This document shows, piece after piece, positions 9,331-20,729 of a stretch of 43,947 nt of DNA. Location: positions 1 through 43,947 of the forward strand of contig VGYX01000017.1 in the NCBI GenBank assembly GCA_016872835.1, written 5' to 3'. A program made the position numbers and the translations under genes. Each line of letters begins with the position of its first letter. The first letter of the stretch is position 1. The DNA is from Planctomycetota bacterium. Lineage in GTDB: Bacteria > Planctomycetota > Phycisphaerae > Phycisphaerales > SM1A02. Under the pieces are notes generated by a model that worked only from the letters and a program-made list of their open reading frames with translations, made no database searches and had not been told where the DNA came from.

Positions 9331-9346
9331 GCTTCGCCTCGTCGGG

Positions 9347-9358
9347 GATGATACGAGC
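9347..9358 (+). promoter_or_regulatory. Putative -10 (GATGAT, N6) for the Mla-type ATPase gene
   Basis: GATGAT at 9347-9352 ends six bases before the ATG at 9359 and matches the -10 consensus at four of six positions. No Shine-Dalgarno can fit in front of this ATG, consistent with a leaderless transcript. Confidence 0.4.
9348..9353 (-). promoter_or_regulatory. Putative -10 (TATCAT) for the Nudix gene
   Basis: TATCAT lies 17 bases before the ATG, leaving room for a short leader with a GAGG element. It overlaps the GATGAT hexamer read in the opposite direction for the divergent ABC gene, so one site may fire both ways. Confidence 0.4.
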
Positions 9359-12698: not shown

Positions 12699-12950
12699 TC
12701 AGTTCCGATCGCCACCTTGCAGCGCGTCCAGACCCATCTGCTCGATGCGGCGCTCGGCGTCCTCAAGGATCGACCTGCAGCGAGTCACCAACGACCGGCC
12801 GCGCTCGAAAGCCTTCAGACTGTCCTCCAGCGAGACCTGCCCCTGCTCCATGCGGTCCACGAGCGTCTCGAGTTCCCGCATCGCGGCCTCGAAGTTCGGC
12901 GCCTCGTCAGCGTTGTTCGCGGCCTGTTGCTCGGCGGACTTGCGTGCCAT
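12699..12950 (-). CDS. xseB: Exodeoxyribonuclease VII small subunit
   Basis: An 83-residue, almost entirely helical protein matching XseB: 'NFEAAMRELETLVDRMEQGQVSLEDSLKAFERG' is the family signature, covering about residues 19-51. XseB binds XseA to form exonuclease VII, which degrades single-stranded DNA from both ends. The ATG at 12950 is chosen from the family length and from TAGATT seven bases upstream. A longer open frame further upstream is only antisense-like noise over xseA. It follows xseA by 10 bases. Confidence 0.94.
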   Translation of the reverse strand: MARKSAEQQAANNADEAPNFEAAMRELETLVDRMEQGQVSLEDSLKAFERGRSLVTRCRSILEDAERRIEQMGLDALQGGDRN

Positions 12951-12963
12951 GGACCGGAATCTA
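12951..12963 (-). promoter_or_regulatory. Putative -10 (TAGATT, N7) for xseB, overlapping the xseA stop
   Basis: TAGATT at 12963-12958 starts with the xseA stop codon TAG and ends seven bases before the xseB ATG. The same hexamer with the same stop-codon overlap precedes the mlaD-like gene. Confidence 0.42.
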
Positions 12964-14385
12964 CCCGCCCCGCTCCACACGCGAGCGCACGGTTCCGCGT
13001 TCAAGGCGCGTCGTGATCCGTGCGCCATCGGCGAGCGTGGAGGCGTCGCGCACGGGCCGTCCCTCGTCGTCCAGCGTGATCGAATAGCCTCGTGCGAGCG
13101 TGCGCTCGGGTGCCACCGCTTCCAGACGCGCCGCCAGCGCACGAAGGGCGTCCGCCCGACCCTTGATCGAGCCGCGCAGCGAAAGATCGAGGCGATGCGA
13201 GAGGTTCGCCGCGCGGGCGCGCCCCACGGCCACCGCCTGTCGCGGCGCCTGCGCCTGCAGACGGGATTCCAGCGTGCGGACCCGCTCGAGCACCGAGGCC
13301 ACGAAGCGACTCGACACGTGTCCCATCCGAAGCAGTGCACGCGCCAGACGCTCCGAGGGTCGCCCCAGCATCGCGCGGGGGTCGCGCAGACACGCGCGCG
13401 TGGCGAGCCCACGAACATGCTGCGACCGCACCTGGATGCCCTGACGCACCAGCGCGCGCAGCCGCGACCCGACCGCGTCGAGCTGTGTGAGGAGTTCCTG
13501 CCGCTCGGGAATCACCGCGACCATCGCCTGCGTGGGCGTGCTGGCCCGCAGGTCCGCCACCAGTTCGATCACGCTCACGTCCGACTCATGCCCGATCGCC
13601 GCGACCAGCGGCAGTTGACTTCGGAACGCCGCATCCGCCACCACGCGCTCGTTGAAGGGCTGCAGATCCTCGCGGCTTCCGCCACCGCGCGTGACCACGA
13701 GCACATCCACGCCCAGTCGATCGGCGTTCGCGTTCACCGCATCGATCGCGCGCGCCACGTCCTCGGCCGCGCCCGCGCCCTGCACCGCGACGTGCACCAC
13801 GCGAAGAGGCACGGAGGGCAGGCGATTCCCGGAGATCTTCAGGCAATCAGCCAGCGCCGCGCTGCCTGAGGCGGTGACGATGGCCACCCCGCGCGGCACG
13901 AGCGGAAGCGGGCGCTTGCGCGCCTCGTCGAAATACCCGAGGCCGCGGAGTTCGATGCACAGTGCGCGGAATCGAGCTTCGAGATCGCCCTCGCCCACCA
14001 GCGAGACGCGATCCACCACGAGGCGCAGTCGGCCTCCACTCGCCCAGAAGTCGAAGCGCCCCTCGACCACCATCCGCTTGCCGACCACGGGTTGCGCCTC
14101 GCTGCGGCCGAGCGCACTGAGCCACATGATGCAGTCAATCACGGCGTCCGCGGCCGGATCCTTCAGCGTGAAGAAGCACGCCTTCTTGGTGGCGACCGAC
14201 CCGATCTCCCCCTCCACGCGCACGCGTCCGATCGCGAAGACCGAATCGCGGACCGCGGCCGCCGCCTGCGACACCGTGAGGGCGGCGGGTTCGGGCGCCG
14301 CCTCCTCCTGGGGCGAGACGGGCGAGGCTGGCGCGTCGAAGAGTCCACCCGCGGCCATCGCTGGATCGAAGGGCTTGCGTGCCAC
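12961..14385 (-). CDS. xseA: Exodeoxyribonuclease VII large subunit
   Basis: A 474-residue catalytic subunit of exonuclease VII. An N-terminal OB-fold (about 35-135) contains 'VEGEIGSVATKKACFFTLKD'. The catalytic domain shows 'VTRGGGSREDLQPFNE' and 'AIGHESDVSVIELVADLRASTPTQA'. A long coiled-coil region follows, and the end has the usual 'LARGYSITLDDEGRPV'. I use the GTG at 14385 (reading VARKPFDP) because TACGAT lies exactly six bases upstream; an ATG at 14358 would shorten it by nine residues. It is divergent from recG across a 23-base gap and followed by xseB. Confidence 0.94.
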   Translation of the reverse strand: MARKPFDPAMAAGGLFDAPASPVSPQEEAAPEPAALTVSQAAAAVRDSVFAIGRVRVEGEIGSVATKKACFFTLKDPAADAVIDCIMWLSALGRSEAQPVVGKRMVVEGRFDFWASGGRLRLVVDRVSLVGEGDLEARFRALCIELRGLGYFDEARKRPLPLVPRGVAIVTASGSAALADCLKISGNRLPSVPLRVVHVAVQGAGAAEDVARAIDAVNANADRLGVDVLVVTRGGGSREDLQPFNERVVADAAFRSQLPLVAAIGHESDVSVIELVADLRASTPTQAMVAVIPERQELLTQLDAVGSRLRALVRQGIQVRSQHVRGLATRACLRDPRAMLGRPSERLARALLRMGHVSSRFVASVLERVRTLESRLQAQAPRQAVAVGRARAANLSHRLDLSLRGSIKGRADALRALAARLEAVAPERTLARGYSITLDDEGRPVRDASTLADGARITTRLERGTVRSRVERGG

Positions 14386-14408
14386 GCGCGCATCGTACGA
14401 TCGCCCAC
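14386..14408. promoter_or_regulatory. Palindromic divergent promoter of xseA and recG
   Basis: ATCGTACGAT (14392-14401) is a perfect 10-base palindrome. Read rightward it gives TACGAT (14396-14401), seven bases before the recG GTG. Read leftward it gives TACGAT (14397-14392), six bases before the xseA GTG. The two -10 hexamers share two bases and fill the whole 23-base gap, leaving no room for a 5' leader in either direction. Confidence 0.55.
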
Positions 14409-16514
14409 GTGGAGGCTGGAACCGTCGACGCACGCACCCCGCTGACCGCCGTGACCGGCGTCGGATCTCGTGCCGTCGAGCGACTCGGTCATCTCGGCAT
14501 CCGCACGGCCGGCGATCTCGTTCGCCACCTGCCGATGCGACATGAGCGGCGACTGGCCGAGCGAACCATCGCCGAGACGATCGCCGCCACGACCGAGGAC
14601 ACGGTGAACGTGCGCCTTCGCGGTGAGGTCGCACGCGTGCGGACGCGACCCGGCCCGCGTGCCCTGATCGAGGCGACGCTTGACGACGGCACGGCCACCG
14701 CACGACTGGTCTGGTTCAACGCGCCGTGGATGCGCGGCAAGATCCATCCGGGCGAGCGTGGCGTGGCGGAGGGCCGCGCACGCATGCGTCAGGGTTATCT
14801 GGAGATCGGAAACGCGCGCTGGACGCAGGAGGCGCGCGCCGGCGAGGTCGCAGCGGGCGTCGACGATCTCAGGCCAATCTATCCGGCAAGTGAGGAGATC
14901 GGCTCGGCCGAGATCGAGATGGTGGTGGCGCGCGTGCTCGAGGGCGTGTGCGCCGGCATGGAGGACCCGCTCCCGGAGTCGTATCGGCGGGAGCGTGATC
15001 TGATGCCGCTGGCCGCGGCATGGCGCGCCATGCATCGGCCCGCGGACGCCGAGGAACTCGCGCGCGCGCGGCGCCGGCTCGCCTTCGACGAACTGCTGCT
15101 GCTGCAACTGGGCGTGATGATGCGACGCGCGCAACTGCGCAGCCGCACGCGTGCCGTGCCGCTGCCTGTCGATGCCGCGATCGATGCGCACATCCGCTCC
15201 CGCATTCCCTTTCGCCTCACGAGCGAGCAGGACCGCGTGGTCGCCGAGATCGCGGCCGATCTTGGCCAGGCACACGCGATGAATCGCCTGCTTCAGGGCG
15301 ACGTCGGCAGCGGCAAGACGGCCGTCGCCGCCTACGCCATGCTGCTCGCGGTGGCCCACGGCCATCAGGCTGCGCTGGTGGCGCCCACCGAGATCCTCGC
15401 GGAGCAGCACCATCGCGTGCTGGCGCGCATGCTGGAGGGGAGCGAGGTCTCCCTGCGACTGCTGACGGGCTCGACCCCCGAATCGGATCGCGCGGCCTGC
15501 GTGGCGGGACTCGCGCGCGGTTCCATCCATCTGGTGGTGGGCACGCATGCGCTGCTGGAGGGAGGCGTGGCGTTCCGGAGTCTCGCGGTGGCGGTCGTGG
15601 ACGAGCAGCATCGGTTTGGCGTACGCCAGCGAGCGGCGATCCGCCAGAAGGGTCAGGGCGAGACGCCGCTGATTCCCCACACCCTGGTGATGACGGCCAC
15701 GCCGATCCCGCGCACGCTCGCCATCACCCTGTACGGCGATCTTGATCTGAGCACGCTTCGCGGCAAGCCGCCCGGTCGCAAGCCGGCCGTCACCCGCGTG
15801 GTGGATCCCGGAAAGGCTCCGGAGGTCTACAGCTATCTGCGCAGCCGCCTGAATCGTGGCGAGCAGGCCTACGTGGTGGTGCCAGCCGTCGAGGAATCCG
15901 AAACTGGCCTGAAGGATGTCACGTCGCATGTGCGCTTCCTGTCCGAGGGCCCGTTCAAGGGACTCACGATCGCCAGCGTGCACGGGCGGATGGATCGGGA
16001 GGAGCGCGAGGCGCAGATGGAGCGATTCCGCGGCGGCGGCGCAAGCGTGCTGGTCGCGACCACGGTGATCGAGGTCGGCGTGGACGTGCCCAACGCCACG
16101 CTGATGGTCGTGGAGCACGCGGAGCGATTCGGCCTTGCGCAGTTGCACCAGTTGCGCGGACGCATCGGGCGCGGCGAGGGCGCGAGCCTCTGCGTGTTCA
16201 TCGGCGAAGCGGCCACGCCGGACGCCACCGAACGACTCGCGGCCATCGCCTCCAGCGACAATGGCTTCGACATCGCCGAGAGCGACCTGCGGCTTCGCGG
16301 TCCAGGCGAGGTCTTCGGCGCGCGGCAGTCCGGTCTCGCACCCTTCCGCGTGGCGGATCTCTCGACCGACGCCGATCTTCTTCGCCTCGCACGCGCCGAT
16401 GCGCAGGGCTGGATCGACCGTGATCCCGACCTTCGGGCCGCCGAGTCCGCACTGCTGCGCCGCAAATTGATGGCGCTGCACGGTCAGGCGCTTGGACTGG
16501 CGGACGTGGGCTGA
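14409..16514 (+). CDS. recG: ATP-dependent DNA helicase RecG
   Basis: A 701-residue helicase that reverses stalled replication forks and processes Holliday junctions. The N-terminal wedge/OB domain begins with 'LTAVTGVGSRAVERLGHLGI', typical of RecG. The helicase motor has Walker A GDVGSGKT (about residue 297), the DEQH box followed by RFGV, motif III in MTATPIPRTLAITLYGDLD, and the RecG C-terminal block 'RGRIGRG' and 'GPGEVFGARQSG'. The GTG at 14409 is chosen because TACGAT lies seven bases upstream and the family length fits; the in-frame ATG at 14379 would overlap the xseA start. Confidence 0.95.
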   Translation: MEAGTVDARTPLTAVTGVGSRAVERLGHLGIRTAGDLVRHLPMRHERRLAERTIAETIAATTEDTVNVRLRGEVARVRTRPGPRALIEATLDDGTATARLVWFNAPWMRGKIHPGERGVAEGRARMRQGYLEIGNARWTQEARAGEVAAGVDDLRPIYPASEEIGSAEIEMVVARVLEGVCAGMEDPLPESYRRERDLMPLAAAWRAMHRPADAEELARARRRLAFDELLLLQLGVMMRRAQLRSRTRAVPLPVDAAIDAHIRSRIPFRLTSEQDRVVAEIAADLGQAHAMNRLLQGDVGSGKTAVAAYAMLLAVAHGHQAALVAPTEILAEQHHRVLARMLEGSEVSLRLLTGSTPESDRAACVAGLARGSIHLVVGTHALLEGGVAFRSLAVAVVDEQHRFGVRQRAAIRQKGQGETPLIPHTLVMTATPIPRTLAITLYGDLDLSTLRGKPPGRKPAVTRVVDPGKAPEVYSYLRSRLNRGEQAYVVVPAVEESETGLKDVTSHVRFLSEGPFKGLTIASVHGRMDREEREAQMERFRGGGASVLVATTVIEVGVDVPNATLMVVEHAERFGLAQLHQLRGRIGRGEGASLCVFIGEAATPDATERLAAIASSDNGFDIAESDLRLRGPGEVFGARQSGLAPFRVADLSTDADLLRLARADAQGWIDRDPDLRAAESALLRRKLMALHGQALGLADVG

Positions 16515-20689: not shown

Positions 20690-20705
20690 GGGAGCGGCGA
20701 TCGTA
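20690..20705 (-). promoter_or_regulatory. Putative -10 (TACGAT, N10) for rsmD-ispD
   Basis: TACGAT at 20705-20700 ends ten bases before the rsmD ATG. It lies 12 bases from the oppositely oriented TAGGGT of the hydrolase gene, so the two promoters are nearly back to back. Confidence 0.42.
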
Positions 20706-20717
20706 GTCGAAGCCTGC

Positions 20718-20729
20718 TAGGGTGTCGGG
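20718..20729 (+). promoter_or_regulatory. Putative extended -10 (TGC-TAGGGT, N6) for the hydrolase
   Basis: TAGGGT at 20718-20723, preceded by TGC as in extended -10 elements, ends six bases before the GTG at 20730. This supports GTG as the true start with a leaderless message. Confidence 0.48.

What the first reader, a model, noticed from the sequence alone, without database searches (positions are those of the whole stretch)
14383..14411. One 10-base palindrome provides both -10 elements for recG and xseA
ATCGTACGAT at 14392-14401 reads TACGAT in both directions. The gaps to the two GTG starts are 7 and 6 bases, so the whole regulatory region of two DNA-repair genes is 23 bases with no leader on either side. 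RNA polymerase could bind in only one orientation at a time, so the two genes would compete for the same site. Symmetric -10 sites driving divergent transcription are known in bacteria; a leaderless version this compact is unusual.
Basis: partly seen in the sequence, partly recalled or inferred. Interest (0 to 1): 0.72.

Follow-up and report, generated by a model that had tools for sequence, protein, structure and literature searches.

The report
Shared leaderless promoter between repair genes
Two DNA-repair genes that point away from each other appear to share one tiny symmetric promoter, with each message predicted to start at or right beside its first codon; relatives keep the arrangement although the letters change, so it is probably real, but it is a compact variant of a promoter type already known in bacteria.

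Summary
ATCGTACGAT lies at 14392-14401, 6 bases from the xseA GTG and 7 from the recG GTG. TACGAT on each strand would start transcription at, or one base before, each start codon. Predicted start sites lie 23 bp apart, a spacing described as common for E. coli bidirectional promoters (PMC12825309).

Relatives support function. Of 46 family loci with a homology-anchored xseA start, 38 have TANNNT 5-9 bases before it; 35 of these 38 have an overlapping opposite box at 18 or 23 bp. Controls: 3 of 15 recG loci without divergent xseA, 5 of 113 other leaderless-like genes of this genome. The exact palindrome survives in only 5 of 11 same-genus loci; the box pair persists and switches geometry.

Leaderless starts are ordinary here (177 of 996 genes with TANNNT at gap 5-9; 12, 27 and 12 at control gaps), without a -35 signal. 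Two more 22-base gaps of this design occur in about half of the genome, and genus g5 has 17-base ones. So: a compact variant of a known promoter kind, not unique in this lineage. Nothing here measures transcription; competition is not shown and is doubtful at basal activity.

The parts
14392..14401 (.). perfect 10-base palindrome ATCGTACGAT containing both -10 boxes; 23-bp geometry ATCG[TA]CGAT, the two boxes sharing the central TA
   Evidence: relatives
14396..14401 (+). putative -10 box TACGAT for recG, gap 7 to GTG
   Evidence: TANNNT gap enrichment; relatives
14392..14397 (-). putative -10 box TACGAT for xseA, gap 6 to GTG
   Evidence: TANNNT at gap 5-9 in 38 of 46 homology-anchored family loci
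14408..14409 (+). predicted recG transcription start (leader 0-1 nt)
   Evidence: inferred from -10 position (+1 seven bases past the last T); not measured
14385..14385 (-). predicted xseA transcription start (leader 0 nt), 23 bp from the recG start
   Evidence: inferred from -10 position; not measured
14386..14408 (.). whole intergenic region, 23 bases
14409..16514 (+). recG, ATP-dependent DNA helicase, 701 aa, GTG start
12961..14385 (-). xseA, exodeoxyribonuclease VII large subunit, 474 aa, GTG start
12699..12950 (-). xseB, exodeoxyribonuclease VII small subunit, downstream of xseA on the same strand
   Evidence: TIGR01280, 76.6 bits, cut-off 35

Best explanation
The 23-base gap is a minimal bidirectional promoter. 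The housekeeping RNA polymerase holoenzyme recognises TACGAT on either strand (the two boxes share the central TA step), opens the DNA in one orientation or the other, and starts transcription about seven bases beyond each box, at or one base before the GTG of recG or of xseA. Both mRNAs would be leaderless, or nearly so, and translated from a 5'-terminal GTG. No -35 box is needed, because the leaderless-like promoters of this genome show none. Supported by sequence: position of both boxes relative to both starts, conservation of the opposed pair, genome-wide leaderless signature, absence of a -35. Inferred: actual start sites, RNA polymerase binding, leaderless GTG translation. Competition between the two orientations is possible but probably small unless one side is activated.
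For: Start codons supported by homology. In 46 loci with homology-anchored xseA starts, 38 have TANNNT at gap 5-9 and 35 of these 38 have an overlapping opposite TANNNT at 18 or 23 bp; counting any gap, 42 of 46 have a pair. By genus, scoring a genus if any of its loci qualifies, 18 of 21. Controls: 5 of 113 leaderless-like genes of this genome without a close divergent partner, and 3 of 15 leaderless-like recG loci in other families without divergent xseA. Fisher p for 35 of 38: 2e-25 and 6e-7; for 18 of 21: 4e-15 and 1e-4; relatedness is only partly removed. In the five closest loci the 10 core columns are invariant against 3 of 12 flanking columns (these loci were chosen because they hold the core). 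Geometry switches between 23 and 18 bp, described as common and most common in E. coli (PMC12825309). Leaderless signature: 177 of 996 genes at gap 5-9 against 12, 27, 12 at control gaps. No -35 excess: 13 of 175 against 10.7 shuffled. TACGAT itself stands at gap 5-9 before 10 genes of the sample.
Against: No transcript data. TANNNT is a weak motif; given one box, a chance partner at 18 or 23 bp needs only one further T (about 0.39 at the local T content, my estimate), and against that null the genus-level p is 1.6e-5. 4 of 46 anchored loci lack the pair (L149, L154, L159, L165). Of 21 loci without an anchored start, 11 show a pair at some gap and 10 none (53 of 67 overall); at least one of the 10, L135, is a miss of my start choice, as the pattern search found a 17-base pair there. 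Six same-genus loci have the pair 11-21 bases from xseA, so xseA would have a leader there, and in five of them recG is 138-201 bases away. A recG leader of 0-3 bases is possible in 17 of 67 loci, 16 without L147, whose qualifying pair is far from xseA; recG starts are not anchored. E. coli translates leaderless GTG poorly (PMC4633059 passage), so function depends on this lineage's ribosomes.
Confidence: 0.82

Rival explanations
1. Only xseA (or only recG) uses the element; the opposite -10 is a by-product of -10 symmetry that makes non-productive RNA, and the other gene has a different promoter.
For: -10 symmetry alone yields chance reverse boxes (13 of 62 leaderless-like genes with a close divergent partner and 5 of 113 others); in five same-genus loci (L088, L090-L093) recG lies 138-201 bases away and may have its own promoter; L149, L154 and L159 keep an xseA box without a partner.
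Against: Partner box present in 35 of 38 against 5 of 113 and 3 of 15 in controls; in this window the genes are 23 bases apart, so another recG promoter would have to lie inside xseA; in other families 15 of 17 recG loci without xseA next to them have a box at leaderless distance from a candidate start.
Confidence: 0.11
2. The palindrome is an operator for a dimeric regulator, such as a DNA-damage repressor, rather than a promoter.
For: Perfect 10-base dyad between two repair genes; only two places in the genome.
Against: The dyad letters drift in relatives (TACGATACG, TATAGTACGG, TGATATCGT and others) while two opposed TANNNT stay, mostly 6-7 bases from xseA. One search aligned loci chosen for TANNNT, so its conserved T, A and T columns are not independent evidence. 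No regulator was searched for.
Confidence: 0.04
3. Chance: short AT-containing stretch in a GC-rich gap.
For: TANNNT fixes only three bases.
Against: Exact 10-mer expected 0.01 times per window; place and design conserved across genera.
Confidence: 0.03

Closest known systems
Bacterial bidirectional promoters (Warman et al. 2021 Nat Microbiol, known only through citing text; Warman et al. 2026 NAR PMC12825309, abstract and sections 4, 14, 22 read; Salmonella plasmid study PMC10268837, passages)
   Same: Overlapping -10 boxes on the two strands; predicted TSS spacing in the preferred set (18 most common, 10 and 23 also common); some lie between divergent genes (24% in E. coli), often functionally linked.
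   Different: Both mRNAs predicted leaderless, so the gap (17-25 bases) is about the spacing between start sites; no -35 signal; conserved over a family with switching geometry. The parts I read do not discuss leaderless pairs.
Leaderless genes with an adjacent -10 (Zheng et al. 2011 PMC3160421, passages; Deinococcus-Thermus 2025 PMC12340547, outline and word search; mycobacteria PMC4633059, passages)
   Same: TANNNT about 12 bases upstream of the start codon; ATG or GTG at the 5' end.
   Different: In what I saw these are single-direction promoters; PMC12340547 has no occurrence of divergent, bidirectional, palindrom, opposite or intergenic, and PMC3160421 none of planctomyc, in their main texts.
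RecG and ExoVII pathway link in E. coli (PMC6393302, abstract and passages)
   Different: The passages seen say nothing on shared expression.

Membership tests
bacterial bidirectional promoter | opposed -10 elements that overlap on the two strands | tested here: met
   TACGAT on both strands sharing TA 14396-14397
bacterial bidirectional promoter | divergent TSS spaced 7-25 bp, preferred 18, 10 or 23 | tested here: inconclusive
   predicted spacing 23 from -10 positions; TSSs not mapped; definition from PMC10268837 and PMC12825309
bacterial bidirectional promoter | two RNAs made from the element | not testable with these tools
   needs 5'-end mapping or in vitro transcription
bacterial bidirectional promoter | both boxes kept in relatives (my added test, not part of the published definition) | tested here: met
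   pair in 42 of 46 anchored loci; 35 of 38 with xseA box at gap 5-9; controls
leaderless gene promoter (TANNNT type) | TANNNT with its first T about 12 bases before the start codon | tested here: met
   gaps 6 and 7; genome peak at gap 6-7
leaderless gene promoter (TANNNT type) | mRNA 5' end at the start codon | not testable with these tools
   no RNA data
sigma-70 promoter with -35 box | TTGACA-like box 16-18 bp upstream of the -10 | tested here: not met
   none found by the scan of 14200-14600; no excess in 175 leaderless-like genes
regulator operator (dyad) | dyad letters conserved independently of -10 positions | tested here: not met
   exact palindrome in 5 of 11 same-genus loci; other letters elsewhere

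The most novel reading that the evidence does not exclude
In this planctomycete family, leaderless initiation plus -10 symmetry has produced a general gene-pair architecture in which two divergent genes are joined by nothing but one shared -10, so that intergenic lengths take set values (about 17-18 or 22-23 bases) fixed by RNA polymerase geometry; recG and xseA are a long-conserved case in which the two polymerase orientations keep RecG and ExoVII expression coupled.
Probability: 0.4. Interest if true: 0.72.

Novelty: new variant of a known kind. Interest (0 to 1): 0.55.

Why it matters
If transcription confirms it, this is close to the smallest possible control region for two genes: the start-codon spacing is the spacing of the two transcription start sites. 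It would let one ask directly, in a natural setting without -35 boxes or leaders, whether opposed polymerases at one -10 compete, and whether selection keeps two repair genes coupled this way. It would also extend leaderless, -10-only expression to a phylum for which two word searches of a limited library gave one unrelated-looking paper (Sinorhizobium) and none.

Tried and rejected
Classical promoter or terminator scan of 14200-14600: nothing. Operator reading: rejected because the dyad letters drift. Claim that the palindrome is unique: rejected, a second copy exists. Claim that the design is unique: rejected. Genome-wide pattern counts in 111 family genomes gave a mixed result: 23-bp geometry with gaps 6/6, 291 against 217 for the reversed-pattern control; gaps 6/7, 196 forward and 212 reverse against 281 and 281; 18-bp geometry with gaps 6/6 (pattern flanks 5/5), 136 against 283 (summed). 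Two of three patterns fall below the control. I think that control is distorted by coding sequence (not tested), so the case rests on gene-anchored data. The contrast of 6/6 with 6/7 (ratio 1.7 after dropping genus g7 and G064, a choice made after seeing the rows; 1.4 from the full totals) is weak evidence. In the own-genome grid the 23-bp geometry peaks at gaps 6/6 with 4 (reversed control 0), but the 18-bp geometry shows 0 at its matching cell. Among the shortest divergent gaps, the 19-base one (L217), the 26-base one and both 28-base ones have no shared pair by my rule. Order level: of 20 regions fetched from other families, 18 gave a usable recG start region; 1 of them (L241, family f3) has divergent xseA, and recG's box there is not shared.
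Full report
Observation. The window carries ATCGTACGAT at 14392-14401, with 6 bases to the xseA GTG (minus strand, 14385) and 7 to the recG GTG (14409). It is found once in the window against 0.01 expected and at two places in the 2.39-Mb genome. RecG passes two NCBIfam cut-offs and just misses that of TIGR00643; XseA passes its own; xseB follows xseA on the same strand. A gene finder trained on codon pairs, blind to promoters, returns these starts (the pair appears with the same 23-base gap in the larger run).

Geometry. On each strand TACGAT fits TANNNT. Counting +1 as the seventh base past the box, the xseA transcript starts on the G of its GTG and the recG transcript one base before its GTG, 23 bp apart. 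In E. coli, divergent start sites at bidirectional promoters are most often 18 bp apart, with 10 and 23 also common (PMC12825309, introduction read). The window thus fits a described geometry.

Are leaderless genes normal here? I analysed 1,239,819 bases of the genome, about half, window included. Of 996 predicted genes with usable starts, 177 have TANNNT 5-9 bases before the start, against 12, 27 and 12 in three control gap ranges; the peak is at 6 and 7 bases (first seen in 48 of 205 first-of-operon genes of a smaller sample, against 6, 2 and 5). Among 175 such sequences there is no -35 signal: 13 against 10.7 in shuffles. So a -10 alone, set against the start codon, is a common form, and two can fit in 23 bases without a -35 in either coding sequence.

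Conservation. RecG loci came from 16 genus genomes, 181 family genomes including those (at most 30 loci kept per search), and 40 further regions that I chose to cover other genera. I analysed 71 loci with the recG N-terminus; 67 have divergent xseA upstream and 4 gave no xseA hit (contig end, too short, or absent). In 46 of the 67 the xseA start is fixed by its N-terminal alignment. Of these, 38 have TANNNT at gap 5-9, and 35 of the 38 have an overlapping opposite TANNNT at 18 or 23 bp. Seven more have the pair further from xseA, and four have none (L149, L154, L159, L165). By genus, any qualifying locus counting, 18 of 21. In the 21 loci with uncertain xseA starts, 11 show a pair and 10 do not; L135, one of the 10, has a 17-base pair that my start choice missed.

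Controls. Leaderless-like genes of this genome without a close divergent partner carry such an opposite box in 5 of 113 cases; those with a divergent partner within 120 bases in 13 of 62 (an earlier smaller control gave 2 of 46). In other families of the order, of 17 recG loci without xseA, 15 have TANNNT at gap 5-9 before a candidate recG start, and 3 of the 15 have an opposite box at 18 or 23 bp. One locus of family f3 (L241) has divergent xseA but recG's box is not shared. This suggests, as inference, that recG had its own leaderless -10 before it came to share one with xseA. A simpler null, in which a partner needs only one further T, gives a genus-level p of 1.6e-5.

What is conserved. 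The exact palindrome is present in 5 of 11 same-genus loci with xseA (L083, L084, L085, L086, L094). In these five the recG leader is predicted at 0-3 bases, and the ten core columns are invariant while 3 of 12 flanking columns are (the loci were picked by the core, so this only describes the contrast). In the other six the geometry is 18 bp and the box sits 11-21 bases from xseA; in five of these recG is 138-201 bases away. Elsewhere in the family the letters vary and the geometry is 18 or 23 bp, sometimes both. A regulator's operator should keep its dyad letters; a pair of -10 boxes should keep TANNNT on both strands and the distance to the start, which is what is mostly seen.

Not unique. 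In the sampled half of the genome, 156 divergent pairs were counted; the shortest non-negative gaps are 19, 22, 22, 23, 26, 28, 28. The gaps of 22, 22 and 23 are both-leaderless pairs in 23-bp geometry; those of 19, 26, 28 and 28 are not. In genus g5, 17-base gaps with 18-bp geometry join recG and xseA (L236; that recG start is not fixed by homology) and pdxJ and phoU (L239; NCBIfam alignments begin at residues 1 and 4 of the two proteins). Other 22-base pairs join an aminopeptidase-like gene (below curated cut-offs) with a YgfZ-like one, and a pseudouridine synthase with a gene that has no NCBIfam match.

Weak or adverse results. Genome-wide pattern counts over 111 genomes do not by themselves prove the quantised-gap idea: one pattern exceeds its reversed control (291 to 217) and two fall below it (408 to 562; 136 to 283).

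Mechanism and competition. Polymerase can occupy the shared box in one orientation only, but the five tested E. coli bidirectional promoters had basal activity too low for competition; it appeared when one direction was activated (PMC12825309, abstract and sections 4, 14 and 22). A 5'-terminal GTG is enough for leaderless translation in mycobacteria but poor in E. coli (PMC4633059 passages). Functional linkage of the two genes is plausible: in E. [quoted passage not shown]

Literature limits. Searches of an open-access library for leaderless genes with TANNNT, with bidirectional, divergent or overlapping promoters, for recG with xseA, and for planctomycetes with leaderless listed no paper that I recognised, from the listed titles and abstract openings, as describing both-leaderless bidirectional promoters or this pair. 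Listings were capped at 10 to 20 rows, and subscription papers are largely absent. The 2021 Warman paper was not held.

Noticed in passing
L228:15881-15902 and L221:14743-14764 (same genome as the window): Two further divergent gene pairs with 22-base gaps and one shared -10 in 23-bp geometry, both sides predicted leaderless.
   Followed up: partly
L239:1042-1064 (genus g5): pdxJ and phoU joined by a 17-base gap with TATGCTA in the middle; both GTG starts agree with family alignments.
   Followed up: partly
genome sample L172-L231 and window: 55 of 416 genes with a same-strand neighbour within 40 bases also carry TANNNT 5-9 bases before the start, suggesting internal leaderless promoters in operons.
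   Followed up: no
L088, L090-L093: In these same-genus loci recG lies 138-201 bases from xseA; the 18-bp opposed -10 pair stays near xseA.
   Followed up: no
L172:8194-8270 (C3:8213-8222): Second genomic copy of ATCGTACGAT, also between divergent genes; by my reading an in-frame GTG upstream of the predicted minus-strand start would be leaderless at gap 7.
   Followed up: partly
window 9331-9358 and 20690-20729: Other short divergent gaps (28 and 40 bases) in the window without a shared -10 pair by my rule.
   Followed up: no
own-genome leaderless-like genes, positions -15 to -13: A mild C-G-C preference just upstream of the -10 (0.53, 0.57, 0.50) in place of the TG of an extended -10.
   Followed up: no
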